Of a stretch of DNA of 64,000 nucleotides, positions 45,063 to 63,443 are shown in pieces. Source of the DNA: Sandaracinus amylolyticus. Lineage in GTDB: Bacteria; Myxococcota_A; Polyangia; Polyangiales; Sandaracinaceae. The stretch lies in contig NZ_CP011125.1 of the NCBI RefSeq assembly GCF_000737325.1, positions 9,114,001 through 9,178,000 of the forward strand, written 5' to 3'. Under the pieces are notes generated by a model. It was not told the DNA's origin, did not search any database, and saw nothing but the letters and a program-made list of their open reading frames with translations. Every line of letters begins with the position of its first letter. The stretch's first letter is position 1. The translations under genes were made by a program, and so were the position numbers.

Positions 45063-45078
45063 CGGCACCTCGCTTGCT
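45063..45078 (+). promoter_or_regulatory. -24/-12 (sigma-54-like) promoter of the 45125 gene
   Basis: CGGCACCTCGCTTGCT matches the TGGCACG-N4-TTGCW consensus at 10 of 12 fixed positions, with GG and GC correctly spaced. The predicted start near 45089 leaves a 36-nt leader containing aggagg. Confidence 0.6.
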
Positions 45079-45124
45079 CCACACCGGAGCACCCGTTCGA
45101 GCCCCGAGCCCAGGAGGTCGTTCG

Positions 45125-45415
45125 ATGGTCGACATCACGAAGACGATCGCGTCGATCGGCAATCGTCCCGAGGTCCGCAAAGCCGTCCGCTCGCTGCGCG
45201 AGGTCGGCGTGGGCAACGCGATCGCGGCGGTCGGCATCGTCCCGGTCGTCGGCACCGCGCTGATTCCCGGCGTGTTCGCCGCGGGCGCGTTGTTCGGCGC
45301 CGCGGCCGCGCTCGTCTTCACGCCGCGCACCCGCGAGGCGCTGAAGAAGGACATCGACGAGATGCTCGAGCAGCTGCGCGCCGGCGGGCGCGAGGACGCG
45401 GCGACCGCGGGCTGA
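45125..45415 (+). CDS. Small YtxH-like membrane-associated protein
   Basis: 96 residues from ATG 45125 with a perfect aggagg at 45113-45118. A polar N-terminus precedes a hydrophobic Gly/Ala-rich segment (about 32-64, AVGIVPVVGTALIPGVFAAGALFGAAAALVF) and a charged helix (TREALKKDIDEMLEQL), the layout of YtxH-like stress proteins. A sigma-54-like promoter precedes it. The EEP gene 28 nt downstream may be co-transcribed. Confidence 0.7.
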   Translation: MVDITKTIASIGNRPEVRKAVRSLREVGVGNAIAAVGIVPVVGTALIPGVFAAGALFGAAAALVFTPRTREALKKDIDEMLEQLRAGGREDAATAG

Positions 45416-45443
45416 CGCAGCGGCGCGCGGCGACGACGACGCG

Positions 45444-46232
45444 ATGACCGACGCCGACGTCGAGCTGCAGGCGCCCCCGCCGACGCTGCGCGTGATGACC
45501 TACAACACGCACGGCTGCGTCGGCACCGACGGAGTGCGCGCGCTCGAGCGCATCGCGGACGTGCTGCGCGCGTGCGACGCCGACGTGATCGGTCTCCAGG
45601 AGATCGACGTCGGGCGCACCCGCAGCGGCGGCCTCGACCAGGCCGAGGCGATCGCGGTGCGCCTCGGCATGAGCCACGTGTTCGGCGCCGCGCTCTACGA
45701 CGGCCGCGGGCACTACGGCAACGCAGTGCTCTCGCGCCATCCGATCGAGCACGTGCGCACCGAGAAGCTGCCGACGTGGCGCGCCGTGAGCGAGCCGCGA
45801 TGTTTCGTCCACACGCGCGTCGCCGCGCCGGGCGGCGAGCTCGACGTCGTGGTCACGCACTTCGGGCTCGGTCCGATCGAGCGCATGGGCCAGGCGCGCC
45901 ACGTCGCGGCCGAGATCGAGCGGACGTCCTCGCCGCACACGGTGCTGCTCGGCGACTTCAACTGCGGGCGTGGGTCGATCGCCTACCGGCGCCTCACGAC
46001 GAGCCTCGCCGATGCGCAGCAGCTGGGGCGCCCCGGGTACGTCTGCGCCACGTATCCGTCCTGGCGACCCATCTTGCGGATCGACCACGTCCTGGTGGGC
46101 GCCGGGCTCGAGGTCCTCGCCGCGGAAGTCCCGAACAAAGGGCTGGTTCGCGAGGCGTCGGATCATCTCCCGGTCGTCGTATCCGTGCGCCGGGCGCGCG
46201 CGGTGGAGCGTGCGCGCGGACGCCTCGCGTGA
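45444..46232 (+). CDS. Endonuclease/exonuclease/phosphatase-family protein
   Basis: 262 residues, with no signal peptide. EEP-fold landmarks: RVMTYNTHGCVG near 16-27, DVIGLQEIDVGRTRSGG near 47-63 (metal Glu), THFGL near 138, LLGDFNCGRGS near 169-179, IDHVLVG near 213 and the final ASDHLPVVVSV near 234 (catalytic Asp-His). Closest in style to the cytosolic YafD/CapA-type or phosphodiesterase members. The substrate may be a phospholipid headgroup, nucleic acid or sugar phosphate and cannot be chosen. Probably in an operon with the YtxH-like gene. Confidence 0.88.
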   Translation: MTDADVELQAPPPTLRVMTYNTHGCVGTDGVRALERIADVLRACDADVIGLQEIDVGRTRSGGLDQAEAIAVRLGMSHVFGAALYDGRGHYGNAVLSRHPIEHVRTEKLPTWRAVSEPRCFVHTRVAAPGGELDVVVTHFGLGPIERMGQARHVAAEIERTSSPHTVLLGDFNCGRGSIAYRRLTTSLADAQQLGRPGYVCATYPSWRPILRIDHVLVGAGLEVLAAEVPNKGLVREASDHLPVVVSVRRARAVERARGRLA

Positions 46233-46310
46233 GGCGCGGTGCCACAGCAGGGAGCACGCAGTCAGGGCGTGTCTTTCGCGATCTCGACGTGATCTCGGCC
46301 CTCCGCGCCG

Positions 46311-46326
46311 TGGCACCAGCCGTGCA
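46311..46326 (+). promoter_or_regulatory. -24/-12 (sigma-54-like) promoter of the sigma-factor gene
   Basis: TGGCACCAGCCGTGCA: perfect TGGCAC half, correct GG-GC spacing, 10 of 12 fixed positions. It predicts an 80-nt leader to ATG 46417. Confidence 0.55.
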
Positions 46327-46416
46327 GAACGGCCCCGCGCACCCCCCGACGAACCCGATGGTTTCTCGACGCGCGTGGCCCCGGAGGCCCGCGCTCCTGC
46401 ACGTCTCGGAGGAACG

Positions 46417-47253
46417 ATGTCGATCCACAGCGCACGCGAAGGTTCCCTCGGCGCATATCTGCGCGCGGTCACCCGGATTCCCATGCTCACCCGCGAGGAA
46501 GAGCGCGATCTGGTGACGCGGATGAAGTCGACCGGCGAAGAGTCGCTGCGTCGCCGTCTCGTCGAGAGTCACCTGCGCCTCGTCGTGAAGATCGTGCGCG
46601 GCTACCCGGCGCTCCAGCGCTGCATGATGGACGCGATCCAGGAGGGCAACGTCGGCCTCCTCGTCGCGGCCGACCGCTTCGACCCCGAGCGCGGGGTGCT
46701 CTTCTCGACCTACGCGTCGCTCTGGATCCGCGCGTACGTCATCGCGTTCCTGCGTGATCGCCTGCGCGTCGTGCGCAGCTCGACGACCCGCGCGGGCCGC
46801 CGCCTCTTCTTCAACGTGGGCCGCGCGCACGCGTCGCTGCTCGCCGAGAACATCGAGCCGACGCGCGAGGCGATCGCGGAGCGCCTCGGCGTGGACGCGA
46901 GCGAGGTCGAGTCGCTGCTCGCGCGCCTCGAGAACCGCGACGTGAGCCTGAGCGCGGCGACCGGCGACGGAAGCCGCCGCACGGTCGAGGACACGCTCGC
47001 GAACGATCTGCCGGGCCCGGAGGAGGTCGTGGCGGCGCACGAGGAGCGCGAGCGCGCGGTCTCGGCGATCAACCACTTCCGCCAGCAGCTCGGCGATCGC
47101 GACGCGTGCATCTTCGATCACCGCCTCGTCGCCGACGAGCCCGCGTCGCTGCGCGCGGTCGGCGAGCAGATCGGCGTGAGCGGCGAGCGCGTGCGCCAGC
47201 TCGAGCGCCGGCTGCGCGACCGGCTCGCGGATCACCTGCGCGCCTGCGCCTGA
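46417..47253 (+). CDS. RpoH-like RNA polymerase sigma-70-family factor
   Basis: 278 residues from ATG 46417 (ggaggaac). Region 1.2/2: LGAYLRAVTRIPMLTREEERDLVTRMK, then SHLRLVVKIVRGYPALQRCMMDAIQEGNVGLLVAADRFDPERGVLFSTYASLWIRAYVIAFLRD. Region 3 is in the middle, and region 4 is DEPASLRAVGEQIGVSGERVRQLERRLRDRLADHL. Length and region 4 resemble the sigma-32 class (group 3). In region 2.1 the usual sigma-32 wording is altered (MMDAIQEG for DLIQEG), so the targets may be specialised. A sigma-54-like promoter upstream would make it part of a two-sigma cascade. A strong terminator follows. Confidence 0.88.
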   Translation: MSIHSAREGSLGAYLRAVTRIPMLTREEERDLVTRMKSTGEESLRRRLVESHLRLVVKIVRGYPALQRCMMDAIQEGNVGLLVAADRFDPERGVLFSTYASLWIRAYVIAFLRDRLRVVRSSTTRAGRRLFFNVGRAHASLLAENIEPTREAIAERLGVDASEVESLLARLENRDVSLSAATGDGSRRTVEDTLANDLPGPEEVVAAHEERERAVSAINHFRQQLGDRDACIFDHRLVADEPASLRAVGEQIGVSGERVRQLERRLRDRLADHLRACA

Positions 47254-47278
47254 GAACGTCGCGTCGGTGCGTCGGATG

Positions 47279-47320
47279 AAGCCCGCGCGTCCCTCCGGGG
47301 GGACGACGCGGGCTTTGTGT
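47279..47320 (+). terminator. Intrinsic terminator of the sigma-factor gene
   Basis: A 15-bp stem with one bulged A (47279-47293 with 47300-47315, loop tccggg) is followed by a tttgtgttt tract. Confidence 0.88.
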
Positions 47321-47376
47321 TTCGACGGGTCGACGTCCGGGGTCGGGGGTGGGCGGGCCGAGGTCGCGGTGCGCGC

Positions 47377-47622
47377 CAGACGATTTCGTCGAAAAGCGGG
47401 TGCCGACGACCCCCCGCCAGACGATTTCGTCAAAAAGCGGGTGCCGACGACCCCCCGCCAGACGATTTCGTCAAAAAGCGGGTGCCGACGATCCCCCGCC
47501 AGACGATTTCGTCAAAAAGCGGGTGCCGACGACCCCCCGCCCGACGATTTCGTCAAAAAGCGGGTGCCGACGACCCCCCGCCAGACGATTTCGTCAAAAA
47601 GCGGGCGCCGACGACCCCTCGC
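47377..47622. repeat. Six tandem 41-bp repeats with terminator-like units
   Basis: Units begin at 47377, 47418, 47459, 47500, 47541 and 47582 with only a few substitutions (first unit g for a in the poly-A, fifth cc for ca, sixth some). Each holds the near-palindrome gacgatttcgtc. Read on the reverse strand, each also has GCGGG ... CCCGC followed by TTTTT, an intrinsic-terminator-like element. They lie just downstream of the reverse-strand response regulator. Confidence 0.9.
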
Positions 47623-47690: not shown

Positions 47691-48110
47691 TCACCCGAGC
47701 AGCCGGCGCTTCGTCGGGACCAAGCACGCGATGGCGAGCACGAGGTCCTCCGGCGCGAGCGGCTTGCGGACGTGCGCGTGGAAGCCCGCGCGCGCTGCTT
47801 CGTCGACGTGGTCCTCTTCGCCGAGCGCGGTCACCGCGAGCGCCGGGACGCTCGCCGCGCGGCCGCCCCGCGCGCGCACGCGGCGCATGAGCTCGAAGCC
47901 GTCGACCTCGGGCATCGACAGGTCGCTCACGATCACGTCGAACGACGCGCCCGTGTCGAGCACCTCCAGCGCCGCGCGCGCCGAGCCGACGGCGTGCACG
48001 TCCGCGCCCGCCTCGCGCAGCGCGATCGCGTGGAGCTCGAGGATGTCGGGGTCGTCCTCGACGACGAGGACGTGGGCACCTTCGAGCGGCCTGACGGTCT
48101 TCACGATCAT
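47691..48110 (-). CDS. Stand-alone response-regulator receiver protein
   Basis: 139 residues from ATG 48110, only a CheY-like domain. LVVEDDPDILEL supplies the acidic pocket, VIVSDLSMPEVDGFELM the phospho-acceptor Asp near 63, the Thr/Ala switch is in LAVTALG, and the Lys is in HVRKPLAPEDL. No output domain, so it signals by protein contact. The partner kinase is not adjacent; the hybrid kinase at 51630 is a candidate. It is followed by the repeat array that looks like a terminator cluster. Confidence 0.92.
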   Translation of the reverse strand: MIVKTVRPLEGAHVLVVEDDPDILELHAIALREAGADVHAVGSARAALEVLDTGASFDVIVSDLSMPEVDGFELMRRVRARGGRAASVPALAVTALGEEDHVDEAARAGFHAHVRKPLAPEDLVLAIACLVPTKRRLLG

Positions 48111-48189: not shown

Positions 48190-48456
48190 TCACGCGAGCC
48201 GGCGCCGCGTGGCGAACATCATCAACACGAGCAGCAGGATCGCACCGAGCACCGAGCCGATGAAGCCCGCGGCGTGCACCTGCAGCGCCGTGTTGCCCGC
48301 GAGCAGGTTGCCGACCAGGCCACCGACGAACGAGCCGGCGACGCCGAGGAGGATCGTGCCGGGGATGCTCATGGGCTGCGAGCCGGGCACCACTGCGCGC
48401 GCGATGAAGCCGACGACGAGACCGAAGACGATCCAGGTCAGGATGGTGATCAACAT
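48190..48456 (-). CDS. GlsB/YeaQ/YmgE-family membrane protein
   Basis: 88 residues from ATG 48456 with ggagg upstream. Three hydrophobic segments and the family glycine pattern ([44 protein letters not shown]) identify it. Family members are small general-stress inner-membrane proteins. The promoter at 48525-48540 looks sigma-54-like. Paralogue at 54878-55162. Confidence 0.92.
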
Positions 48457-48524: not shown

Positions 48525-48540
48525 AGCAACGAAGAGGCCA
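48525..48540 (-). promoter_or_regulatory. -24/-12 (sigma-54-like) promoter of the first GlsB-like gene
   Basis: On the reverse strand, TGGCCTCTTCGTTGCT: both TGGC and TTGCT halves intact and correctly spaced. Predicted leader about 58 nt. Confidence 0.5.
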
Positions 48541-48629
48541 TCCGAGGACTCGCGTCTGCGCCACGCCGCCCGTCGTCGCAGCGGCGCGTCGTGCCTCGCG
48601 CCGACGCGGAAATCCCGGTCCTTCGGCGA

Positions 48630-48645
48630 GGGCACGCGTGCTGCA
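48630..48645 (+). promoter_or_regulatory. -24/-12 (sigma-54-like) promoter of the 48684 gene
   Basis: GGGCACGCGTGCTGCA, 10 of 12 fixed positions. Forms a divergent pair with the site at 48525-48540. Predicted start near 48656, about 28 nt before ATG 48684; aggagg lies at 48665-48670. Confidence 0.5.
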
Positions 48646-48683
48646 CTCGGCCTCACGCGGGAGCAGGAGGACGAATCGGTCGT

Positions 48684-49319
48684 ATGGAGCGGCACCTCGC
48701 GACGAAGGGATCACGCGGCAACACGCGACGGAGCGTGCGGCACGCGGCCACGATCGCGCTCGCGATGCTCGCGTCGGCGCTCGTTCCAGCGTCGGGCGCG
48801 CGGGCGCAGCAGTACTACGAGCCGCTGCCCGAGGGTTACTACACCGACGATCGCGTGCGCTTCGCGGTCGACGGTCTGCTCGGCGGAATGGCGGGCGCGG
48901 AGGGCGGAGTCGGCGGCGGCGTGTCGGTGCACGTCGGGCTGCAGCTCAACGACATCGTCGCGACGTACGCGGTGCACCGGCTCTGGCTCGCCGATCTCGT
49001 CGCGAGCGATCGGGGCACGTTCGCGGTGTCGACGAACTCGGTCGTGATCGACCTGACGCTCTTCGAGCACGTGCAGTTCGGCGCCGGGCCTTCGCTCGAC
49101 GTCGGCATCGGCGGGCTCTGCGGCCAGGACGCGAGGCGCTGCGACGGCCTCGGCGATCTGCACCTCGGGCTCGAGGCGCGCCTCGCGGTGGTGCTCGGCG
49201 AGCGCACGCGCGCGCGCCGGCGCGGCCTCGTGATCAGCGCGAACGTCCACCCGATCTTCATCGATCGGAACGTCACGGTCGTGATCATGGGGCTCGCGGT
49301 CGGCTACCAGATGTACTGA
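48684..49319 (+). CDS. Predicted exported beta-rich protein, outer-membrane-barrel-like
   Basis: 211 residues. Signal peptide to about 40 (IALAMLASALVPASGARAQ). The rest alternates hydrophobic residues in short strands and ends VVIMGLAVGYQMY, an aromatic-final strand typical of small outer-membrane barrels. A Tyr-rich start to the mature part (QYYEPLPEGYYTDD) and one Cys pair are also present. No known family. ATG 48684 is somewhat far (13 nt) from the aggagg, so the start is moderately sure. Confidence 0.68.
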   Translation: MERHLATKGSRGNTRRSVRHAATIALAMLASALVPASGARAQQYYEPLPEGYYTDDRVRFAVDGLLGGMAGAEGGVGGGVSVHVGLQLNDIVATYAVHRLWLADLVASDRGTFAVSTNSVVIDLTLFEHVQFGAGPSLDVGIGGLCGQDARRCDGLGDLHLGLEARLAVVLGERTRARRRGLVISANVHPIFIDRNVTVVIMGLAVGYQMY

Positions 49320-49448: not shown

Positions 49449-49901
49449 TCAGCTCTCGCGATGGTGGGGCACGACGAGCACGGGCATCGGCGCGGTGCGC
49501 ACGACGCGCTCGGCGGTGCTGCCGAGCAGCAGGTGCGCGAGCCCGGTGCGCCCGTGGGTGCCCATCACGATCATGCCGGCGCCGATGCTCTTCGCGAGCT
49601 TCACGATCTCGCGCGCGGCGGTGCCGGTGACGACGTGCACGTGCGGCTCGAGGCAGAGCTGCGTCGCGAGCTGACGAAGGCTCGCGGACGCCTCGCGCTG
49701 CATCTGCGGCAGCGGCGGGCCCATCATCTCCTGCGGCGCGAGGCCGATCTCGGGCACCGGCATCGCCGGCATCGGGAGCGGGACGACGTGCGCGAGGTGG
49801 ACCTCGGCGCCGAGATCGCGCGCGATCGACGAAGCGAAGCGCGCGGCAGCCTCGGAACTCGCCGAGAAGTCGACGGGGCAGAGAATGGCCGCGATGTTCA
49901 C
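49449..49901 (-). CDS. Universal stress protein (UspA family)
   Basis: 150 residues from GTG 49901 (ggagg 5 nt upstream). One Usp domain: AILCPVDFSASSEAAARFA at the start and the ATP-binding-type GMIVMGTHGRTGLAHLLLGSTAERVVRTAPMPVLVV (G-x2-G-x9-G-S) near 112-146. A Met/Pro-rich loop lies at 45-70. It would bind ATP in the cytoplasm under stress. The GTG overlaps the BrkB-like stop by 4 nt, so the two are co-expressed. Confidence 0.93.
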   Translation of the reverse strand: MNIAAILCPVDFSASSEAAARFASSIARDLGAEVHLAHVVPLPMPAMPVPEIGLAPQEMMGPPLPQMQREASASLRQLATQLCLEPHVHVVTGTAAREIVKLAKSIGAGMIVMGTHGRTGLAHLLLGSTAERVVRTAPMPVLVVPHHRES

Positions 49902-50920
49902 GTAGACCTCCGGCCCGTTCCCAGCACGGGCGGTGCCACGCGCGGAGGTGCGGCGCGCCTCGATCGTGCGCGCGCGGGCACGCTCGCCACGGGCTCGTCG
50001 TCGACCCACGGCGGCGCGCCCTCGCGGGCCCTCACGTGGCCGCCGCGCATCGCCACGACGCGCGTGAGCTCGGCGCCGAACACCAGGATCTGCCCGGAGA
50101 ACGCGAGCCAGAGGAGCACCACGATCACCGAGCCCGCCGCGCCGTACGCCGCGCCGACGTCGACGCGCGCGAAGTACGCGCCGAGCAGCGCGTTGCCGAT
50201 GCTGAAGAGCAGCGCGGTGACCATCGCGCCGATCCAGGTCTCGTGGAGCTCGACGTGGCGGTGCGGAGCGCGCCGGAACGCGAGCGCGAACGCGAGCGTG
50301 AGCACGCCGATCGAGAGCATCGCGTGCGCGCCGCGCAGCGCGAGGTGCACCGCGACGCCGCGATCCGCGAGCTGCACGGTGATGAGATCGAGCACCGTCT
50401 GCGCGACGAGCGAGCCCGCGATGACGAGCCCGAAGCCGAGCACCAGCACGAACGAGATCGCGCGCTGCACGACCATCCAGCGCACCGCGCCGCGCACGCT
50501 CTCGTGCTCCTTCACCGGCGCGTCCCACACCGCGTCGAGCGTCGACTCGAGCTGCGCGAACACGCGCGACGCGCCGAGCGCGAAGAGCACGAGGCCGATC
50601 ACCGTCGCCTCCGAGCTCGCCGCGCTCGCCTCGTCGGTCCACGCGCCGACCATCGCGGCGGCGCGCTCGCCCGCGAAGCCCTCGATCGCGCGCATCAGCT
50701 GCATGCGCGCGTTGCCCTCGCCGAACACGACGCCGGCGATCGCGACCGCGACGACGAGGAGCGGGGCGATCGAGAGCAGCGTGTAGAACGCGAGCGCCGC
50801 ACCGAGCAGGCTGCCGCGGTGGCGCTGGTAGGACGCGAGCGCCTCGCGCACGACGGCGACGAAGGCCCGCACCACCCCGATCGCGCCGTGGCGGACCTCG
50901 GTGCGCGCGTGGTGCCACAT
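49898..50920 (-). CDS. YihY/BrkB-family membrane protein
   Basis: 340 residues as annotated from ATG 50920. The family core GSLLGAALAFYTLLSIAPLLVVAVAIAGVVFG near 37-68 and SRVFAQLESTLDAVWDAP are clear, with six membrane segments and a polar C-terminal tail. Function is not firmly known in the family. A -24/-12-like motif at 50935-50950 would start transcription about 4 nt before this ATG, so either the motif is false or the start is a later GTG (near 50875-50878). Coupled to the universal stress gene. Confidence 0.85.
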   Translation of the reverse strand: MWHHARTEVRHGAIGVVRAFVAVVREALASYQRHRGSLLGAALAFYTLLSIAPLLVVAVAIAGVVFGEGNARMQLMRAIEGFAGERAAAMVGAWTDEASAASSEATVIGLVLFALGASRVFAQLESTLDAVWDAPVKEHESVRGAVRWMVVQRAISFVLVLGFGLVIAGSLVAQTVLDLITVQLADRGVAVHLALRGAHAMLSIGVLTLAFALAFRRAPHRHVELHETWIGAMVTALLFSIGNALLGAYFARVDVGAAYGAAGSVIVVLLWLAFSGQILVFGAELTRVVAMRGGHVRAREGAPPWVDDEPVASVPARARSRRAAPPRVAPPVLGTGRRST

Positions 50921-51026
50921 CGAGGCGGGGTCGGAGCAAGCACGATGCCCTCGAACGCGCGACGCGAGCGGGGCGATGCGCCTCGGTCCACGCGCGATGT
51001 TCCGGCGCATCACGCGCGATTCGCGT

Positions 51027-51042
51027 GGCACCCCCTCTGCTA
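51027..51042 (+). promoter_or_regulatory. -24/-12 (sigma-54-like) promoter of the 51085 gene
   Basis: TGGCACCCCCTCTGCT: intact TGGCAC and correct spacing, 10 of 12 fixed positions. Predicted 32-nt leader that includes the ggagg before GTG 51085. Confidence 0.58.
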
Positions 51043-51084: not shown

Positions 51085-51507
51085 GTGGAAACTCGGACCG
51101 TTCCCGCTCACACGCCGCGCACCACGCGCAACGAGTCGATCACCCGCTGGAGCCGCAGCGCGCGCATGGTGCTCGGCATCGTGCTGGCCGTCGTCATCGT
51201 GACGTTCGCGGTGTCCGCGATCGCCAGCTTCGCGGTTCCGACGCCGCCGGAGAGAGTGAGCCTCATCCACTGGAGCCTCTTCGTCGCGACGTTCATGCAG
51301 TACTTGCTCTGCCTGTTCTTCATCTCGTTCGCGGCGCAGAACCCGCGGAGCGACAACCGAGGGCTCTGGATCGCGGGGATGGTGCTGCTCCCCTGGGGCA
51401 TCCTGCCGGTGTACTGGTGGGCTCACGTCTGGAACGCCCCTTACGTCAGCGATCCCAGCCACGACTACAACGTGCCGGGCGGCCAGCTCACGCCGCAGGC
51501 GGACTGA
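51085..51507 (+). CDS. Three-segment membrane protein of unknown function
   Basis: 140 residues from GTG 51085 (ggagg 4 nt upstream). Hydrophobic segments at about 26-51, 63-85 and 95-112, the last followed by PWGILPVYWWAHVW. The C-terminus is short and polar. No family recognised. A good -24/-12 promoter precedes it, which places it in the same putative regulon as the neighbouring stress genes. Confidence 0.7.
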   Translation: METRTVPAHTPRTTRNESITRWSRSARMVLGIVLAVVIVTFAVSAIASFAVPTPPERVSLIHWSLFVATFMQYLLCLFFISFAAQNPRSDNRGLWIAGMVLLPWGILPVYWWAHVWNAPYVSDPSHDYNVPGGQLTPQAD

Positions 51508-51629: not shown

Positions 51630-54563
51630 GTGGTGCGCGCCTTGCTGTGGCAGCGCCTCGAGGTGCGACGAGAATCGGTCACCGTTTCTCGGAAGGATCC
51701 GGTGCGGGGAGAGCGCGGCGACGTGCTGGGACCCCTCGCCGACATCCTTCCGCACGTGGTGTGGGAGACGGACCCGCGCGGTCAGCTCACCGCCGTCAAC
51801 GCTCGTTGGGTCGAGTACACCGGCGTCTGCGCCGACGACTCGATGCGGCTCGGCTGGTCCGCCGTGCTCCATCCCGACGACGTCGGCGCGCGGCTCGGGA
51901 CGCGGCCCGATGGGTTCGGCGACACCCAGATGTCGCGCGTCCGCGTGAGACGTCGCGACGGCGCGTGGCGATGGCACGAGCTCCGCGCGTGCGCGGTGCG
52001 CGAGAGCGACGGCACGCTGAGCCGGTGGGTGGGAACCCTGACCGACGTGCACGACGAGCAGAGCTCCGGCGAGACGACGTTGACCGACCGACCCGACCGA
52101 ACCGGCGCGATCCCGCGCACGCCGCCGAACCACGAGCGCGCGATCCTCGACGCACTGCTCGGCCAGGCGCCGATCGGCATCGCCATCCTCGATCGCGAGC
52201 TGCGCTACCTCGAGGTGAACGAGGTGCTCGCGCGCATGAACGGTCGCGCGCGCGACGCGCACCTCGGGCGCCACCTCGACGAGATCATCGACGCCGAGAG
52301 CGCGGCGCGCGCGAAGGAGATCGCGGCGGAGGTGCTCGCGTCGGGCCTGCCCTCGCCGCAGCTGCACGTGCGGTGGCGCGTCGGCGTCGGGGACGGCGCG
52401 GCGCCGAAGGTGAACGACGGGCTCGCGAGCTACGTGCCGGTGCGCTCGGGCGAGTCGATCGTCGGCATCGCGGTGATCATCGTCGACGTGACCGACGAGC
52501 GGCGCATGGCCGAGGCGCTCGCGGAGAGCGAGCGCCGGTTCCGCATGGTGCAGGACGCGTCGCACGAGGGGTTCCTCGCGCTGCGCGCCGAGCGCGCGGA
52601 GGGCGCGGGCGGGATCACGCTGCGCTGCGTGTACGCGAACCACGCGGCGAGCGAGACGCTCGGGAGCGAGCGCACGATCGCGGGCGCGGATCTGCGCGAG
52701 GTGTGGCCGGAGATCGAGCAGTCGATCCTCTGGGGGCTGCTCACGCGCGTGCTCGACGGCGGCGAGGCGCAGAGCGTCGAGGTCGCGCGTCCGACGCGCG
52801 GCGCGGGCTCGTGGTTCCAGTGCTGGGTCGCGCCGCTCGGGCCGGACGAGGTCGCGCTGCGCTTCGACGACATCACGGCGCGCAAGCGCGGCGAGCAAGC
52901 GCTCGCGATCGTCGGCGAGGTCACGCGCGCGCTCGGCGCGTCGCTGGTGCGCGAGGAGATGCTGCAGGGCTTCGCGCGATCGGTCGTCGTCGAGATGGCC
53001 GACGTGTGCGCGGTGCACCTGCGTGACGCGACGGGGCGCGTGCGCTGCGTCGCGACGGCGGACTCGCGCACCGACTCGCCGGACACGCGCGCGATCGCCG
53101 ATCTCTTCCGCGACGACGAGAGCGCGAAGCACGGGCTCGGCGCGGTGCTGCGCACCGGGACGAGTGATCTCGTGGCCGAGGTGACGCCCGACCTGCTGCG
53201 CTCGGTCGCGCGCGACGACGACGCGCGGCGCGCGCTCGAGGGGCTCGGCACGCGCGCGTGGATCTTCGTGCCGCTCTCGGTGCGTGGTGAGGTCGCGGGC
53301 GCGCTGACGCTCGAGTCCGCGCAGGCGGGTCGTCCGTACGACCTCGCGGATCGCTTCATCGCGGAGGAGCTCGGCCGTCGCGTGTCGGCGGCGCTCGAGA
53401 ACGTCCTGCTCTACGAAGAGGCGCAGCGCGCGAACGCGCTGAAGGACGAGTTCCTCTCGATCGTCTCGCACGAGCTGCGCACGCCGCTCTCGACGATCCT
53501 CGGTTGGTCGAAGCTGCTGATGGACGATCCCAAGCCCGCGCAGGAGCGCGTGCGCAAGGGGCTCGAGGTCATCCAGCGCAACGCGCAGGCGCAGGCGCGC
53601 ATCGTCGACGACATCCTCGACACGTCGCGCATCCTCCGGAACAAGATCACGCTCGATCCCAAGGTCGTGCCGGTCTCGGCGCCGATGGAGGAAGCCGTCG
53701 ATCTCGTGCGCAACGGCGCGACCGAGCGCGGGATCGAGATGGCGCTCGACGTCGATCGCGCCGCGACGGTGCGCGGCGACGCGATGCGCCTGCGCCAGAT
53801 CTTCTTCCACCTGCTGACGAACGCGGTGAAGTTCACGCCACAAGGCGGCCGCGTCACCGCGCGCGTGGTGCGCGACGGGAACGCGACGATCGCGCAGGTG
53901 ATCGACACCGGCGCGGGGATCGATCCGTCGTTCCTGCCGTTCTTGTTCGATCGCTTCCGCCAGGCCGACGCGAGCTCGACGCGCAGGCACGGCGGGCTCG
54001 GGCTCGGGTTGGCGATCTCGCGCAAGCTCGTCGAGCTACACGGCGGGACCATCTCGGTGCAGAGCGAAGGGCTCGGGCGCGGCGCGACGTTCACGGTGCG
54101 CCTGCCCGACGGGCGCGCCTCGAGCGAGCCGGGCACGTCGCCCGGCATCAGCATCGCGCCGCGCGCGAAGACGCCGGATCTCGTGGGCGTGCGCGTGCTG
54201 CTCGTCGACGATCACGACGACGCGCGCGAGCTCTACGGCTCGGTGCTCTCGCTGCGCGGCGCGCGCGTGACGCTCGCCGCGTCGGCGGCGCAGGCGCGCG
54301 CACGGCTCGCCGAGTCGCGCTTCGACATCCTCGTGAGCGACATCGCGATGCCCTACGAGGACGGGATCTCCCTGGTGAGCTTCGCGAAGAAGCACGATCC
54401 CGTGATGCAGGCGATCGCGATCTCCGCGTTCTCGCAGCCCGACGACGTCCGGCGCGCGCTCGAAGCAGGGTTCGAGCACTACCTGACGAAGCCGGTGGAC
54501 ACGCACGAGCTCGTGACCAAGGTCGCCGAGCTCTGCGACGTGCGGACGTCTTCGTACGGCTGA
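51630..54563 (+). CDS. Hybrid sensor histidine kinase (PAS-PAS-PAS-GAF-HisKA-HATPase-REC)
   Basis: 977 residues, no membrane segment, so cytoplasmic. PAS-like domains at about 38-145 (DILPHVVWETDPRGQLTAVNARWVEYTG), 175-290 and 300-425 (ESERRFRMVQDASHEGFLAL), then GAF to about 595. HisKA has SIVSHELRTPLSTILGWSK (His near 612). The ATPase has HLLTNAVKFTP, DTGAGIDPSFLPFLFDRFRQ and GGLGLGLAISRKLVELHGG. A C-terminal receiver has LLVDDHDDARE, VSDIAMPYEDG and YLTKPVD. GTG 51630 is assumed; a later GTG near 51681 is possible. The separate receiver at 47691 could be its partner. Confidence 0.92.
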   Translation: MVRALLWQRLEVRRESVTVSRKDPVRGERGDVLGPLADILPHVVWETDPRGQLTAVNARWVEYTGVCADDSMRLGWSAVLHPDDVGARLGTRPDGFGDTQMSRVRVRRRDGAWRWHELRACAVRESDGTLSRWVGTLTDVHDEQSSGETTLTDRPDRTGAIPRTPPNHERAILDALLGQAPIGIAILDRELRYLEVNEVLARMNGRARDAHLGRHLDEIIDAESAARAKEIAAEVLASGLPSPQLHVRWRVGVGDGAAPKVNDGLASYVPVRSGESIVGIAVIIVDVTDERRMAEALAESERRFRMVQDASHEGFLALRAERAEGAGGITLRCVYANHAASETLGSERTIAGADLREVWPEIEQSILWGLLTRVLDGGEAQSVEVARPTRGAGSWFQCWVAPLGPDEVALRFDDITARKRGEQALAIVGEVTRALGASLVREEMLQGFARSVVVEMADVCAVHLRDATGRVRCVATADSRTDSPDTRAIADLFRDDESAKHGLGAVLRTGTSDLVAEVTPDLLRSVARDDDARRALEGLGTRAWIFVPLSVRGEVAGALTLESAQAGRPYDLADRFIAEELGRRVSAALENVLLYEEAQRANALKDEFLSIVSHELRTPLSTILGWSKLLMDDPKPAQERVRKGLEVIQRNAQAQARIVDDILDTSRILRNKITLDPKVVPVSAPMEEAVDLVRNGATERGIEMALDVDRAATVRGDAMRLRQIFFHLLTNAVKFTPQGGRVTARVVRDGNATIAQVIDTGAGIDPSFLPFLFDRFRQADASSTRRHGGLGLGLAISRKLVELHGGTISVQSEGLGRGATFTVRLPDGRASSEPGTSPGISIAPRAKTPDLVGVRVLLVDDHDDARELYGSVLSLRGARVTLAASAAQARARLAESRFDILVSDIAMPYEDGISLVSFAKKHDPVMQAIAISAFSQPDDVRRALEAGFEHYLTKPVDTHELVTKVAELCDVRTSSYG

Positions 54564-54607: not shown

Positions 54608-54778
54608 TCAGGTGCGCAGCGTGGGACGGCGGCCCGCGACCAGGCTCAGCACCGCGAGCGCGAGGAACCCGACGAACAGGATCTTGCCGATCGTCGCAGC
54701 GCCCGCCGCGATCCCGCCGAAGCCGAAGATCGCCGCGATGAGCGCGAGGACGAAGAACACCACAGACCAGTACAACAT
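54608..54778 (-). CDS. DUF1328-family small membrane protein
   Basis: 56 residues from ATG 54778 with ggagga upstream. [50 protein letters not shown] is the DUF1328 (YtjA-like) signature: two membrane helices around a Gly-rich turn. Such proteins are stress- or biofilm-linked, function unknown. Promoter motif at 54837-54852. Confidence 0.9.
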
Positions 54779-54836: not shown

Positions 54837-54852
54837 TGCACGGCAGATGCCA
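54837..54852 (-). promoter_or_regulatory. -24/-12 (sigma-54-like) promoter of the DUF1328 gene
   Basis: Reverse strand TGGCATCTGCCGTGCA, TGGCA and TGCA halves spaced correctly, 9 of 12 fixed positions. Same TGGCATC start as the 63365-63380 site. Leader about 48 nt. Confidence 0.45.
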
Positions 54853-54877: not shown

Positions 54878-55162
54878 CTAGGACGTGCGCTGGGCCTGCG
54901 AAGCGCGGCGCCGCTGCCCCAGCGCGCCCGTCGCGACACCACCGATCGCGCCCATCGCGCCGCCCGCGAAGCCCGCTGCGTGCACGCCCCAGAGCGGCTC
55001 CCCGACCAGGTGGTTCGCGAGCGCCCCACCGATCAGCGCGCCGGTCATCCCGAGGACGAGGGTCACGTCGACGTCGATCGCGCCGTCGTCTGGAAGCAGC
55101 GCGTGGGCGAAGAGCGCGAAGAGGAACGCGACGACGATCCACGAGAGAATCAGGACTGCCAT
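54878..55162 (-). CDS. GlsB/YeaQ/YmgE-family membrane protein, paralogue
   Basis: 94 residues from ATG 55162 (ggaggg upstream). Three hydrophobic segments and the Gly pattern GMTGALIGGALANHLVGEPLWGVHAAGFAGGAMGAIGGV match the family, and WGVHAAGF parallels QVHAAGF in the 48190 paralogue. It overlaps the end of the upstream kinase gene by 13 nt, so kinase and membrane protein are translated from one mRNA. That direct coupling is unusual and may be functional. Confidence 0.88.
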   Translation of the reverse strand: MAVLILSWIVVAFLFALFAHALLPDDGAIDVDVTLVLGMTGALIGGALANHLVGEPLWGVHAAGFAGGAMGAIGGVATGALGQRRRASQAQRTS

Positions 55163-56205: not shown

Positions 56206-56221
56206 AGCACGGCGAGTGCCA
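56206..56221 (-). promoter_or_regulatory. -24/-12 (sigma-54-like) promoter of the kinase/GlsB-like operon
   Basis: Reverse strand TGGCACTCGCCGTGCT, intact TGGCAC and TGCT, 10 of 12 fixed positions. Predicted leader about 20 nt to ATG 56175. Confidence 0.6.
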
Positions 56222-56388
56222 CGCGAGGCGCGGCTTCGTGGGTGAGATCGCGAAGGAAATCAGGGCTCATGCGACGTCGAGAATCGAGAGGCGCCGGGCC
56301 CGAATGGGGCGCGGCGCCTCGTGGTGGTGTGCGGGTCTCACGCGCGTGCGGCACCTCGTGTCGAGAGCGCCGCGCGCGTGGTGTGGGC

Positions 56389-56529
56389 TCAGAGGAAGAG
56401 CCAGTCCTCTTCCCAGTCGTCGTCGTCCCACACGTCGTCCGCGCGCTCTTCGCGCGCCGGTGCGGGCCGCGTCGCGGGCTCGGGCTGGAATGCCGGGCGG
56501 TCGCGCTCTTCGGTGTCGAGTCCGATCAT
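56389..56529 (-). CDS. 46-residue acidic Trp-rich small protein
   Basis: Short ORF from ATG 56529 with a very strong agggagga Shine-Dalgarno about 7 nt upstream, ending in TGA at 56389-56391. The first 30 residues are Pro/Arg/Glu-rich (MIGLDTEERDRPAFQPEPAT...), and the end is DDVWDDDDWEEDWLFL. No signal peptide or membrane segment. It is the only ORF between the two kinase genes, and a sigma-54-like motif at 56587-56602 gives it a 47-nt leader. It resembles no family I know; the aromatic-acidic tail suggests a docking or degradation signal, a peptide precursor, or a kinase partner. Confidence 0.6.
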   Translation of the reverse strand: MIGLDTEERDRPAFQPEPATRPAPAREERADDVWDDDDWEEDWLFL

Positions 56530-56586: not shown

Positions 56587-56602
56587 AGCAATCGCGGGGC
56601 CA
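56587..56602 (-). promoter_or_regulatory. -24/-12 (sigma-54-like) promoter of the 46-residue ORF
   Basis: Reverse strand TGGCCCCGCGATTGCT: perfect TTGCT and TGGC halves, 10 of 12 fixed positions, correct spacing. Confidence 0.55.
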
Positions 56603-56751: not shown

Positions 56752-57948
<1,197 letters not shown>

Positions 57949-58000: not shown

Positions 58001-58363
58001 TCAGTGCGTGAACCCCGGCGGATCGCTCGCGGGGAACGACTCCCACGACGCCTCTTCGACGACGTCGCGATCGAAGTCCTCGCCGTAGCGGCGCTCGAGA
58101 TCGGGGCGCGGGGCGAAGAGCTCGTCGCGCACGTGCGTGTAGAGCTCCTCTGCCGCGCGACGCAGCACGACGCCGCCCGCCGTCGCGAGCAGCGCGCCGA
58201 CGATGCCGCGGCGACGAACGCCGGAGACGAGCAGGACGCTGCCGATCACCGCACGCGCGACCGACCCGCCCGCGCCCTCGAGCGGATGCGGCGTGTGCAC
58301 GTGCCGCGCGCGCTCGCTCGTGGTCTGCGTGCTCGCTCCCGCCCTTGCCGTCCCCTGATGCAT
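58001..58363 (-). CDS. Small membrane-associated protein with a FPASDPP motif
   Basis: 120 residues from ATG 58363 (ggaggag upstream). The middle has two weakly hydrophobic Gly/Val-rich segments (ARAVIGSVLLVSGVRRRGIVGALLATAGGVVLRRA). The C-terminus VVEEASWESFPASDPPGF is a short motif that recurs at the ends of many small bacterial proteins of unknown role (EASxESFPASDPP). First gene of a probable operon with the anchored kinase. Confidence 0.75.
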   Translation of the reverse strand: MHQGTARAGASTQTTSERARHVHTPHPLEGAGGSVARAVIGSVLLVSGVRRRGIVGALLATAGGVVLRRAAEELYTHVRDELFAPRPDLERRYGEDFDRDVVEEASWESFPASDPPGFTH

Positions 58364-58423: not shown

Positions 58424-58439
58424 AGCAGGCGACGTGCCA
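58424..58439 (-). promoter_or_regulatory. -24/-12 (sigma-54-like) promoter of the FPASDPP-protein/kinase operon
   Basis: Reverse strand TGGCACGTCGCCTGCT, 11 of 12 fixed positions, the best match in the window. Predicted start near 58413, leader about 50 nt. Confidence 0.72.
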
Positions 58440-58531
58440 TTCGCGATGGCTTGCATTCGGGGCTGCTCGCGCACCGAGCGCGTGGCGGTGCGCCCCGAGC
58501 GAGCCGGTCCGCGTCGCGCCTCGCCCACGAC

Positions 58532-58547
58532 GGGCCCGCGTGTTGCT
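58532..58547 (+). promoter_or_regulatory. -24/-12 (sigma-54-like) promoter of the 58578 gene
   Basis: GGGCCCGCGTGTTGCT with a perfect GTTGCT half, 10 of 12 fixed positions. Divergent partner of 58424-58439. Predicted leader about 20 nt containing aaggaga. Confidence 0.52.
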
Positions 58548-58577: not shown

Positions 58578-58820
58578 ATGGCGACCACGCACCAGCGAAT
58601 GTCCCCGCGCATCGCGCGACTTCCCGAGCCCGCGCGCACGAAGGCGATCGAGATGGTCAACGCGCTCGTGCGCGACGGCAGCAGCGAGGAAGAGGCGATC
58701 GAGCGCGCGGTCGCGATGTCGGCGCAGTGGGTCTACGAGCGCGCGCCGGGCGATCTCAGCGCGCTCGAGGGCGACGGAGCCACGACGCCCGAGCGGCCCG
58801 CGGCGCCGCCGCGGCGCTGA
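58578..58820 (+). CDS. Small soluble helical protein
   Basis: 80 residues from ATG 58578 (gaaggaga upstream). Two predicted helices (PARTKAIEMVNALVRDGSSEEEAIERAVAMSAQWVYER) and a Pro-rich tail. The central block resembles small DUF2188-unrelated helical stress proteins with a repeated 'A-x-A-x-A-x-W' ending. No certain family. It abuts the convergent 58821-59060 gene. Confidence 0.68.
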   Translation: MATTHQRMSPRIARLPEPARTKAIEMVNALVRDGSSEEEAIERAVAMSAQWVYERAPGDLSALEGDGATTPERPAAPPRR

Positions 58821-61221: not shown

Positions 61222-61265
61222 CCCCCACCTCCTCGCGCGCTCTCGCGCCGCGTGCAGCCTCGTTG

Positions 61266-61281
61266 TGCAATCGTCGTGCGC
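61266..61281 (-). promoter_or_regulatory. -24/-12 (sigma-54-like) promoter of the AI-2E operon
   Basis: Reverse strand GCGCACGACGATTGCA: intact GCACG and TTGCA, 10 of 12 fixed positions, though the first G of the -24 GG is changed to C. Leader about 34 nt. Confidence 0.45.
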
Positions 61282-61288
61282 AACGCGA

Positions 61289-61648: not shown

Positions 61649-61805
61649 CGCGGCGAAGAAGAGCAGCCGCCGTACCGGACGAGGCCGAGGGCCGCGCTTG
61701 GGACACTCCGCCGCGCGGGCGGGGCACGATGCGCCGGATTTCGAGCGTTCGCGCGGCAATTCTTCGCCATCCAGCTCGGCACGACCGGTGCTCGTGGCTC
61801 ATCGC

Positions 61806-62738
61806 ATGGAGATGCTGGGTCACGCGCGGGTCGTGAGGGTGAACGACTGCGACGTGGCGTGGGGCGAGCTCGGCGAAGGCCCCCCGCTCGTGCTGCTGCA
61901 CGGGCTCGCGGACTCGCACCGCACGTTCCGGCGGATCGCGCCCGCGCTCGCGCGCACGCATCGCGTGCTGATGCCCGATCTACCGGGCCACGGGTACTCG
62001 GGGCGCCCCGCCGACGCGCCGTACGACGCGCCGTGGTTCGCATCGACGATCGCCGCGTGGATGGAGGCCGCGGGCGCGCCGCACGCGGCGATCTGCGGCC
62101 ACTCGTTCGGCGGCGGCGTCGCGCTCGCGATGCTGCGCGATCACGCGGCGCGCGTGGAGCGCCTCGCGCTGATCGCGCCCGGCGGGCTCGGCCGCGAGGT
62201 CACGCCGTGGCTGCGCTTCAGCGCGCTCCCGGTCGCGCGCGCGCTGCTCGGATCGATCCTCGCGCGTCGCATCGCGACGCGGCTCGCGGTGTCGCCGCTC
62301 GGCCCCGCGCGGTTCGCGCGCCCGGAGCCCGAAGAGCTCGCGCGCTACGCGGTGCTCGCGGCGATGCCGGGCACCGCCGAGGCGCTGCAGCGCATCCTCG
62401 ACGCGAGCCTCGACGTGAACGGACAGCGCGCGACGTTCTGGGAGGTCGTCGACGCGAAGACGACGCTCCCGCCGATCGCGGTGCTGTGGGGCATGCTCGA
62501 TCCGGTGCTGCCCTTCGCGCACGCGCGGCGCGCCGCCGAGAAGCTCCTGCACGCGTCGGTGCACGCGTACGAGCGCTGCGGCCACTTCCCGCACCTCGAC
62601 TGCCCGGAGCGCGTGCTCGCGGATCTCTCGGCGTTCCTCGGCGACGCGGAGCGCCCGTGCTGTCGGCTCGTCGACTGCGGCGACGACGGGACGCAGCGCG
62701 CGCAGTGGCTCGACGGTCTCGCGATGGCCGCGGAGTGA
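61806..62738 (+). CDS. Alpha/beta-fold hydrolase
   Basis: 310 residues (ATG 61806; ATG 61812 also possible). LVLLHGLADSHRTFRRIAPALARTHRVLMPDLPGHGYSGRP supplies the oxyanion region. The nucleophile Ser is in AICGHSFGGGVAL near 100, acid Asp in VLWGMLDPVLPFAHARRA near 233, and His in YERCGHFPHLDCPERV near 262. The canonical order contrasts with the permuted esterase at 31461. Substrate unknown; epoxide, ester or C-C substrates are all possible. Confidence 0.9.
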   Translation: MEMLGHARVVRVNDCDVAWGELGEGPPLVLLHGLADSHRTFRRIAPALARTHRVLMPDLPGHGYSGRPADAPYDAPWFASTIAAWMEAAGAPHAAICGHSFGGGVALAMLRDHAARVERLALIAPGGLGREVTPWLRFSALPVARALLGSILARRIATRLAVSPLGPARFARPEPEELARYAVLAAMPGTAEALQRILDASLDVNGQRATFWEVVDAKTTLPPIAVLWGMLDPVLPFAHARRAAEKLLHASVHAYERCGHFPHLDCPERVLADLSAFLGDAERPCCRLVDCGDDGTQRAQWLDGLAMAAE

Positions 62739-62754
62739 CGCGACGCGAACGACG

Positions 62755-62790
62755 AAGGAGCTCGTGCGTCGAGCGCGCACGAGCTCCTTT
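62755..62790 (+). terminator. Intrinsic terminator of the hydrolase gene
   Basis: A 14-bp stem (62755-62768 with 62776-62789) is followed by tttc. Confidence 0.85.
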
Positions 62791-62806
62791 CGCGTCCGAT
62801 CCGACC

Positions 62807-62836
62807 GAGGAGCTCGCGCATGCGCACGAGCTCCTC
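62807..62836 (-). terminator. Hairpin downstream of the 62847 gene, sharing arms with the previous one
   Basis: A 10-bp stem (62807-62816 with 62827-62836) around gcgcatgcgc lies 11 nt past the stop of the reverse-strand gene. Its cgagctcct arm is the same as in 62755-62790, so the arms could pair across hairpins. Confidence 0.55.
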
Positions 62837-62846
62837 TTCGTGATGA

Positions 62847-63335
62847 TCACGGGCTCGTGCGGCGACCGCGCACCGACGTCCTGCCCGGGCGCGCGCGCGG
62901 CAGCGTGTCGGCGTCCTCGTCGACGTCGGGCTGCTCCTCGTCGGTGCCCGCAGCGGAGTCGAGCGTCGCCTGCCCGACCAGCTGGGGCACGATGCCCGCT
63001 TCCATCGCGTCGCGATCGATCTGCTCCTCGAGCGAGTCGTCGCCCTCGATGCGCCGCGACCCACCGCCCTGCGTAGCGAGCAGGATCGCCTCGCCCGCGA
63101 GCTCTTCGACGGCCTGGGGATCGGTCGGCGAGTCGATCGGCGGGCGCTCGTGTCGATGCACGTCGGCGTCGTCCTCGGAGCGCGCCTCGCGGTCGAGCAT
63201 GCGATCGACGTCCTGCTCCTCGTGGAGCGCGGTGGGATCGGTCGTCGGCTCGAACGTCTTGGGCACGCTCAGCCCCGGCTGCGTCGCCGGGTCGCTGTCG
63301 ATCGTGCGGTCCTGATCGCGTCGTCGGCGGGACAT
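62847..63335 (-). CDS. Hydrophilic acidic protein of unknown function
   Basis: 162 residues from ATG 63335. Highly charged, with a basic start (MSRRRRDQDR), long Asp/Glu/Pro/Gly-rich low-complexity stretches and a basic end. Likely disordered, perhaps a nucleoid-, stress- or chaperone-like protein. No signal peptide. Shine-Dalgarno is weak. Divergent from the flavoprotein gene at 63480; both face -24/-12 motifs. Confidence 0.6.
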   Translation of the reverse strand: MSRRRRDQDRTIDSDPATQPGLSVPKTFEPTTDPTALHEEQDVDRMLDREARSEDDADVHRHERPPIDSPTDPQAVEELAGEAILLATQGGGSRRIEGDDSLEEQIDRDAMEAGIVPQLVGQATLDSAAGTDEEQPDVDEDADTLPRARPGRTSVRGRRTSP

Positions 63336-63364
63336 GGCTCGATGGAACCTCCGCGCTCTCTGGG

Positions 63365-63380
63365 TGCAGCCGCGATGCCA
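63365..63380 (-). promoter_or_regulatory. -24/-12 (sigma-54-like) promoter of the 62847 gene
   Basis: Reverse strand TGGCATCGCGGCTGCA, TGGCA-N7-TGCA spacing, 9 of 12 fixed positions. Leader about 19 nt. Confidence 0.45.
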
Positions 63381-63427
63381 CGCCGAGCGACCGAGCACGC
63401 GCGCGGCCTCTCGCCTCATCCTCGCCG

Positions 63428-63443
63428 TGGAACGCGGGTTGCG
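63428..63443 (+). promoter_or_regulatory. -24/-12 (sigma-54-like) promoter of the 63480 gene
   Basis: TGGAACGCGGGTTGCG, correct spacing, 10 of 12 fixed positions. Divergent partner of 63365-63380. Leader about 26 nt, containing cagga. Confidence 0.5.

What the first reader, a model, noticed from the sequence alone, without database searches (positions are those of the whole stretch)
45063..63443. A dense set of sigma-54-like promoters links small envelope and stress genes into one island
Scanning upstream of genes from 45 to 63.5 kb, I found thirteen motifs with the TGGCACG-N4-TTGCW layout and exact GG-GC spacing. All lie on the correct strand and within about 20-80 nt of a start codon. Sites: 45063, 46311, 48525, 48630, 51027, 54837, 56206, 56587, 58424, 58532, 61266, 63365, 63428. 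Most match 9-11 of 12 fixed positions. They occur on both sides of three divergent pairs (48.5, 58.5 and 63.4 kb). The genes served are small membrane stress proteins, an RpoH-like sigma factor, Ser/Thr kinases, a permease operon and a flavoprotein. Upstream regions I checked before 45 kb gave no comparable site. Established: myxobacteria use sigma-54 heavily, and some of their activators carry FHA domains that read phosphothreonine. Inference: the two kinases here may feed such an activator.
Basis: partly seen in the sequence, partly recalled or inferred. Interest (0 to 1): 0.78.

Follow-up and report, generated by a model that had tools for sequence, protein, structure and literature searches.

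The report
Sigma-54 stress-gene island with shared enhancer
A 21-kb block of stress and envelope genes in a Sandaracinus myxobacterium carries a sigma-54 promoter in front of nearly every gene, together with one shared upstream enhancer palindrome, so a single activator protein probably switches the whole block on, a job that most bacteria give to a dedicated stress sigma factor.

Summary
A consensus sigma-54 matrix finds 14 sites of at least 11.5 bits in the 64-kb window, all between 45.06 and 63.43 kb. Two more lie just past the window, so the island runs to about 66.5 kb. Shuffles give 0.7 in the island; other genome stretches give about 0.8 per 20 kb. 61266 lacks the GG and is part of an inverted repeat. 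Four sites were missed (49923, 50935, 51631, 61777). A second Sandaracinus-genus genome keeps the island, with 99% of fixed -24/-12 positions conserved against about 80% of flanking sequence.

New here: 17 of 18 promoters carry an upstream palindrome, GDGGCR-N3-YGCCHC, rare at other sigma-54 promoters. Its best match outside the island lies before a gene for a two-receiver NtrC-type activator (genome 398.8 kb), itself behind a sigma-54 site. In four other genera, sigma-54 sites beside DUF1328 genes carry the same palindrome. Best explanation: a sigma-54 stress/envelope regulon driven by one response-regulator activator, which also switches on an RpoH-like sigma factor. The kinase-to-FHA link is unsupported. 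No expression data exist here; signal and activator identity remain inferred.

The parts
45063..45078 (+). sigma-54 site CGGCACCTCGCTTGCT before small membrane protein 45125-45415 (weak YtxH-like)
   Evidence: 13.1 bits; identical in G002
45005..45019 (+). upstream palindrome GTGGCGCCCTGCCCC
46311..46326 (+). sigma-54 site TGGCACCAGCCGTGCA before RpoH-like sigma factor gene 46417-47253
   Evidence: 13.6 bits; sigma regions 1.2/2/3/4, RpoH models best but below cut-off
46231..46245 (+). upstream palindrome GAGGCGCGGTGCCAC
   Evidence: identical in G002; diverged form with sigma-54 site in a third Sandaracinus genome (L214)
46417..47253 (+). RpoH-like sigma factor, paralogue of the genome's other RpoH homologue at 5.106 Mb (42% identity); 89-100% identical copies only in this genus
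48525..48540 (-). sigma-54 site TGGCCTCTTCGTTGCT before YeaQ/GlsB-type protein 48190-48456 (followed by receiver protein 47691-48110)
   Evidence: 12.7 bits; Transgly_assoc PF04226 and Response_reg
48583..48597 (.). palindrome GGCGCGTCGTGCCTC shared by the divergent pair 48525-/48630+
48630..48645 (+). sigma-54 site GGGCACGCGTGCTGCA before possible outer-membrane-type protein 48684-49319
   Evidence: 11.7 bits; identical in G002
49923..49938 (-). sigma-54 site TGGCACCGCCCGTGCT before universal stress protein 49449-49901 (missed by reader)
   Evidence: 13.1 bits; Usp PF00582
49947..49961 (-). palindrome GAGGCGCGCCGCACC
50935..50950 (-). sigma-54 site GGGCATCGTGCTTGCT before BrkB/YihY-family membrane protein 49898-50920 (missed by reader)
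   Evidence: 12.8 bits; PF03631
50970..50984 (.). 10/10 palindrome GGGGCGATGCGCCTC between 50935- and 51026+; G002 keeps half-sites with changed spacer (GAGGCCACGCGCCTC)
51026..51041 (+). sigma-54 site TGGCACCCCCTCTGCT before membrane protein 51085-51507
   Evidence: 13.7 bits
51562..51576 (+). 10/10 palindrome GGGGCGGTGTGCCTC
51631..51646 (+). sigma-54 site TGGTGCGCGCCTTGCT before PAS-GAF-HisKA-REC hybrid kinase, start probably 51702 (missed by reader)
   Evidence: 12.6 bits; domains
54837..54852 (-). sigma-54 site TGGCATCTGCCGTGCA before DUF1328 protein 54608-54778; no convincing palindrome
   Evidence: 13.3 bits; PF07043; site kept while sequence upstream diverged
56206..56221 (-). sigma-54 site TGGCACTCGCCGTGCT before Ser/Thr kinase 55150-56175 and small membrane protein 54878-55162
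   Evidence: 14.5 bits; Pkinase
56306..56320 (-). 10/10 palindrome GAGGCGCCGCGCCCC
56587..56602 (-). sigma-54 site TGGCCCCGCGATTGCT before 46-aa protein 56389-56529
   Evidence: 13.1 bits
56675..56689 (-). weaker palindrome CGGGCAAGTCGCCAC
58424..58439 (-). sigma-54 site TGGCACGTCGCCTGCT before 58001-58363 and kinase 56752-57948
   Evidence: 15.8 bits, best in window
58482..58496 (.). palindrome GTGGCGGTGCGCCCC shared by divergent pair 58424-/58532+
58532..58547 (+). sigma-54 site GGGCCCGCGTGTTGCT before 80-aa protein 58578-58820
   Evidence: 10.5 bits; identical in G002
61254..61288 (.). claimed site 61266: GG absent; part of inverted repeat GTTGCGCA-N7-TGCACAAC, probably another operator for the AI-2E-family permease operon
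   Evidence: 9.1 bits, conserved in G002
61721..61735 (+). palindrome GGGGCACGATGCGCC
61777..61792 (+). sigma-54 site CGGCACGACCGGTGCT before alpha/beta hydrolase 61806-62738 (missed by reader)
   Evidence: 10.6 bits; fixed positions identical in G002
63365..63380 (-). sigma-54 site TGGCATCGCGGCTGCA before 162-aa protein 62847-63335
   Evidence: 13.9 bits
63403..63417 (.). weaker palindrome shared by divergent pair 63365-/63428+
   Evidence: 6.2 bits leave-one-out
63428..63443 (+). sigma-54 site TGGAACGCGGGTTGCG before pyridoxamine-phosphate-oxidase-like protein 63480-64000
   Evidence: 13.5 bits; PF16242

Best explanation
The stretch 45.0-66.5 kb is a regulon island. Nearly every transcription unit has its own sigma-54 (-24/-12) promoter, and a dimeric enhancer-binding activator reads a common palindrome, GDGGCR-N3-YGCCHC, lying mostly 15-110 bp upstream. 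The likeliest activator is the NtrC-type response regulator encoded at genome C1:398,822-400,807 (REC - AAA+ with GAFTDA loop - Fis-type helix-turn-helix - second REC), which appears to activate its own gene through the same elements. When phosphorylated it would turn on small envelope proteins (YeaQ/GlsB-type, DUF1328), a universal stress protein, BrkB-, alpha/beta-hydrolase- and PNPOx-family proteins, a hybrid histidine kinase, two Ser/Thr kinases and an RpoH-like sigma factor that could carry a second wave. Shown by computation: the sites, their conservation, the shared palindrome and its link to the activator gene. Inferred: binding, activation, the stress signal and the sigma cascade.
For: Density: 16 sites against 0.67 in shuffles, and about 0.8 per 20 kb elsewhere. 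All 18 face a gene. In a same-genus genome the island is syntenic and 214 of 216 fixed positions are identical, against 80% in the 100 bp upstream and 83% in the 30 bp downstream. Palindrome >=9/10 at 16/18 island sites within 14-110 bp, against 8/89 other sigma-54 promoters, Fisher p 2e-11; leave-one-out Mann-Whitney p 2.5e-9. Palindrome halves are 92% conserved, inner N3 74%, flanks 80%. Extra matches recur 19, 31 and 40 bp from the main one. Outside the island the top palindrome score among the sigma-54 sites scanned is in front of the REC-type activator gene. Related activators in other genera also have sigma-54 plus palindrome in front, and one lies about 4 kb from a DUF1328 gene (L052). 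In four other genera all 8 sigma-54 sites next to DUF1328 genes carry the palindrome. RpoN is present.
Against: No expression, footprint or ChIP data. Site s56 and the pair 63365-/63428+ have only weak palindromes (6-7 bits leave-one-out), and DUF1328 in this genome has none. The palindrome was derived from the island; relatives and the activator gene are the independent tests. The Usp palindrome sits very close to its promoter. The activator gene is far from the island (8.8 Mb away in record coordinates, about 1.6 Mb around if the chromosome is circular). A related activator in G004 sits in a sigma-54-rich stress cluster that lacks this palindrome, so the activator-palindrome link is not universal in the clade.
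Confidence: 0.72

Rival explanations
1. The sigma-54 promoters are real and share the palindrome, but a different activator than the one at 398.8 kb (one of about 60 in the genome, possibly an FHA type fed by the island's kinases) binds it.
For: About 60 strong activator-type AAA+ matches exist, about 20 next to FHA domains. The G004 cluster contains a related activator but no such palindrome. Not every activator need regulate itself.
Against: Among about 120 other sigma-54 promoters scanned, the activator gene at 398.8 kb has the best palindrome; only two other activator genes have a sigma-54 site, with poorer palindrome scores. Relatives across genera keep the arrangement.
Confidence: 0.22
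2. Several different activators serve the island's promoters, and the palindrome belongs to a separate dimeric regulator (for example a repressor) that overlays the sigma-54 promoters.
For: Palindrome distances vary (about -16 to -106 from the site start) and a few promoters have weak palindromes.
Against: The palindrome is tied to sigma-54 sites here, in front of activator genes and at DUF1328 loci of other genera; repeats 19, 31 and 40 bp apart fit paired enhancer sites.
Confidence: 0.12
3. Chance or composition: G+C-rich sequence yields spurious -24/-12 matches.
For: A 12-position motif in a 10-Mb genome gives some chance matches; 27 of 180 matches scanned lie inside genes.
Against: Shuffles give 0.67 (maximum 3) against 16; 0 in the other 45 kb of the window; 99% conservation of fixed positions.
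Confidence: 0.01

Closest known systems
NmpR regulon of Myxococcus xanthus (PMC11841059)
   Same: NtrC-type response regulator; palindromic enhancer with 5-bp halves and 5-bp spacer (GCGCA-N5-TGCGC) upstream of sigma-54 promoters, two sites per promoter; acts upstream of mxan_4236, first gene of a putative operon containing nmpR; targets include a universal stress protein.
   Different: Half-site differs (GDGGC(R) here); NmpR's bound promoters are a handful at separate genes; no RpoH-like sigma factor, YeaQ/DUF1328 proteins or contiguous island in what was read; signal there is low oxygen, unknown here; orthology not tested.
Nla28 regulon of M. xanthus (PMC9765219)
   Same: Sigma-54 activator acting on many promoters, stress and starvation related, regulating its own operon.
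   Different: Tandem 8-bp half-sites CT(C/G)CG(C/G)AG instead of this palindrome; most core promoters lie inside genes; targets scattered.
RpoS general stress regulon of Salmonella (PMC5437024)
   Same: Similar cargo: YmgE (transglycosylase-associated family) and YtjA (DUF1328) are RpoS-controlled small proteins.
   Different: Control there is by a sigma-70-family stress sigma factor, here by sigma-54 plus an activator.
Rrp2-RpoN-RpoS cascade of Borrelia (named in the references of PMC3162934; details from general knowledge)
   Same: A sigma-54 activator of response-regulator type turns on a sigma-70-family alternative sigma factor.
   Different: Here the second sigma factor is RpoH-like and is one of about 18 parallel targets.

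Membership tests
Sigma-54 (RpoN) promoter | GG and GC dinucleotides with N10 between them, in TGGCACG-N4-TTGCW context, upstream of a gene in the right orientation | tested here: met
   18 sites including two beyond the window, all oriented; 61266 not met
Sigma-54 (RpoN) promoter | Genome encodes sigma-54 and activators | tested here: met
Sigma-54 (RpoN) promoter | Transcript starts about 12 nt downstream of GC and depends on rpoN | not testable with these tools
   needs 5'-end mapping and depletion
bEBP-controlled regulon (NtrC type) | Shared dyad-symmetric enhancer upstream of the promoters | tested here: met
bEBP-controlled regulon (NtrC type) | Activator with REC, AAA+ with GAFTGA-type loop and Fis-type HTH that binds the enhancer | tested here: inconclusive
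   candidate at 398.8 kb has REC-AAA+-HTH_8-REC with GAFTDA; its binding to the palindrome is not shown
NmpR regulon | Enhancer GCGCA-N5-TGCGC | tested here: not met
   half-sites are GDGGC(R); only the 5-5-5 geometry is shared (PMC11841059)
NmpR regulon | Activator orthologous to NmpR | not tested
   no named M. xanthus sequence was compared
RpoH (sigma-32) equivalog | Score above curated RpoH cut-off | tested here: not met
   46417-47253 scores 204 against a cut-off of 323 for TIGR02392: RpoH-like paralogue
General stress regulon | Induction by several unrelated stresses | not testable with these tools
   only gene content points to stress

The most novel reading that the evidence does not exclude
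In Sandaracinus and related genera part of the general stress response is run by sigma-54 and one two-receiver NtrC-type activator instead of a stress sigma factor, with an RpoH-like sigma factor as a second tier, and in Sandaracinus the target genes have been gathered into one contiguous island.
Probability: 0.45. Interest if true: 0.78.

Novelty: new variant of a known kind. Interest (0 to 1): 0.62.

Why it matters
Bacteria usually run general stress responses with a dedicated sigma-70-family factor (RpoS, SigB, EcfG). A large set of classic general-stress genes placed under sigma-54, which stays inactive without an ATP-driven activator, would be a different design, and it comes with an enhancer sequence and a named candidate activator that can be tested directly. 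It also suggests a use for at least one of the many unassigned activators of myxobacteria, and shows that a conserved enhancer palindrome can be paired with its activator by asking which activator gene carries the same site.

Tried and rejected
Unconstrained 18-bp motif discovery on 13 upstream regions only modestly beat controls (54.8 against 44-50); the 5-5-5 palindrome was then read from its hits and tested separately. Considered and rejected: composition artefact; the RpoH-like factor as an old RpoH orthologue conserved across the order (only same-genus genomes have 89-100% copies); the G004 activator L047 2229-3587 as the regulator (its relative at 6.32 Mb in this genome has another recognition helix and no sigma-54 site or palindrome in its locus); the G004 stress cluster sharing the palindrome (not found); 61266 as a sigma-54 site (no GG). 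A first alignment of activators failed because the loop reads GAFTDA, not GAFTGA. Named M. xanthus activators could not be compared: the HTH search of genome contigs returned one Sandaracinus bin, two Deltaproteobacteria bins and more distant phyla.
Full report
Source. The genome holding the window is one contig of 10,327,335 bases. A same-genus genome, G001, matches the public record 'uncultured Sandaracinus sp. KT_bin-1087' (same contig number, 402, and length, 22,780), so the genus is Sandaracinus. The size agrees with the 10.33-Mb S. amylolyticus DSM 53668 genome (PMC5010890); that strain identity is an inference.

Observation. With a matrix approximated from the published consensus TGGCACG-N4-TTGCW, and no input from these sites, all 14 window hits of at least 11.5 bits lie in 45.06-63.43 kb. 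The thirteenth, 61266, lacks the GG and forms part of GTTGCGCA-N7-TGCACAAC, kept in the sister genome. Four good sites had been missed: 49923-, 50935-, 51631+, 61777+. Beyond the window edge a further divergent pair (66334-, 66507+) ends the island; the rest of the next 20 kb holds no further site of at least 11.5 bits. The island (21.7 kb) has 16 hits at that threshold, 60 dinucleotide shuffles average 0.67 (maximum 3), and the preceding 45 kb has none. Twenty 20-kb stretches of the genome hold 16, two of them the island's tail. Genome-wide, KGGCAYNNNNNNTGCW has 126 matches; of the 100 listed, no 20-kb stretch outside holds more than 4, against 9-10 here.

Conservation. In G002, a complete same-genus genome, gene order is kept from 45 to 66.5 kb and the sites stop at the same borders. 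All 18 sites are present. Their 12 fixed positions are 214/216 identical, against 80% in the 100 bp upstream and 83% in the 30 bp downstream. The DUF1328 promoter is the clearest case: the sequence upstream has diverged and the site has not. In a third Sandaracinus genome the sigma-factor gene again has a sigma-54 site (TGGCATCGCATCTGCA) and a palindrome (L214).

Shared enhancer. Upstream of the sites lies a palindrome with 5-bp halves and 5-bp spacer, GRGGC-N5-GCCYC, refined to GDGGCR-N3-YGCCHC. At least 9 of 10 positions match at 16 of 18 island promoters within 14-110 bp, at 8 of 89 other sigma-54 promoters of the genome and at 1 of 19 sites inside genes (Fisher p 2e-11). By matrix score 17 of 18 reach 8 bits; leave-one-out scoring keeps the contrast (14/18 against 17/120 at 8 bits, p 2.5e-9). 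Divergent pairs share one palindrome. Between species the halves are 92% identical, the inner three bases 74% and flanks 80%; at 50.97 kb GGGGCGATGCGCCTC becomes GAGGCCACGCGCCTC. Weaker second copies are enriched at 19, 31 and 40 bp, near whole helical turns. DUF1328 in this genome lacks a convincing copy.

Which activator. The genome has 78 matches to the sigma-54 activator domain, about 60 of them strong. In 1.35 Mb covering the neighbourhoods of nearly all the strong matches and about 100 listed sites, the best palindrome outside the island (14.6 bits) lies 60 bp upstream of a sigma-54 site in front of an activator gene at C1:398,822-400,807 (L211 12822-14807). Only two other activator genes scanned had a sigma-54 site, with scores of 8.4 and -0.4. 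The protein is REC - AAA+ (GAFTDA) - Fis-type HTH - linker - REC. Its neighbours include a histidine kinase, a lipid-kinase-like protein and an alpha/beta hydrolase. Relatives in G001, G003, G007 and G043 carry perfect or near-perfect GTGGCR-N3-YGCCAC copies at sigma-54 sites in front of the activator or its neighbouring gene; one relative lies about 4 kb from a DUF1328 gene in G053. In G003, G022, G043 and G053 all 8 sigma-54 sites within 450 bp of DUF1328 genes have the palindrome at 10-14 bits. These are independent tests, because the palindrome matrix was defined in the island only. A counter-example: G004 has its own sigma-54-rich stress contig (16 sites in 60 kb) with a related activator but without this palindrome.

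Cargo. Small membrane or envelope proteins (YeaQ/GlsB-type, DUF1328, others without family), universal stress protein, BrkB/YihY-family protein, PNPOx-like protein, alpha/beta hydrolase, PAS/GAF hybrid histidine kinase, receiver protein, two Ser/Thr kinases and an RpoH-like sigma factor. The last scores below the RpoH cut-off and is 42% identical to the genome's other RpoH homologue; close copies occur only in this genus. YmgE- and DUF1328-type proteins are RpoS-controlled in Salmonella (PMC5437024), so the cargo resembles a general stress regulon under a different master.

Mechanism and limits. Proposed: the activator is phosphorylated, its oligomer binds palindromes mostly 15-110 bp upstream and opens sigma-54 polymerase at many promoters at once, including its own; the RpoH-like factor may start a second tier. 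Site, palindrome, conservation and gene content are computed; binding, activation, signal and cascade are inferred.

Comparison. The closest described case found is NmpR of M. xanthus, which binds GCGCA-N5-TGCGC upstream of sigma-54 promoters, has a universal stress protein among its targets and acts at low oxygen (PMC11841059). Geometry and logic agree; half-site, target list and island layout differ, and orthology was not tested. Nla28 uses direct repeats (PMC9765219). Literature searches found no sigma-54 general stress regulon in myxobacteria, within the limits of the held library.

Noticed in passing
window 61254-61288: Inverted repeat GTTGCGCA-N7-TGCACAAC upstream of the AI-2E-family permease operon, kept in G002: probably an operator of another regulator.
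   Followed up: partly
window 47377-47615: About six tandem copies of a roughly 40-bp unit (CCAGACGATTTCGTCAAAAAGCGGGTGCCGACGACCCCCCG) between the sigma-factor gene and the receiver gene.
   Followed up: no
L047, L215, L216 (G004 C112:1-59999): A second sigma-54-rich cluster (16 sites in 60 kb) in a related genus with YeaQ, DUF1328, OmpA, hemerythrin and BrkB-like genes and two activators, but without this palindrome; perhaps the same idea with a different enhancer.
   Followed up: partly
L211 12822-14807: NtrC-type activator with a second receiver domain after the DNA-binding domain; the loop reads GAFTDA, as in nearly all its relatives examined here.
   Followed up: partly
L228 4922-6340 (genome 7.4929-7.4943 Mb): DUF748 protein gene with a sigma-54 site and a 14.0-bit palindrome: the strongest candidate regulon member outside the island and the activator locus.
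   Followed up: partly
L160 165-1478 (genome 2.280-2.281 Mb): Another Ser/Thr kinase gene with a sigma-54 site and palindrome GAGGCCTCACGCCAC.
   Followed up: no
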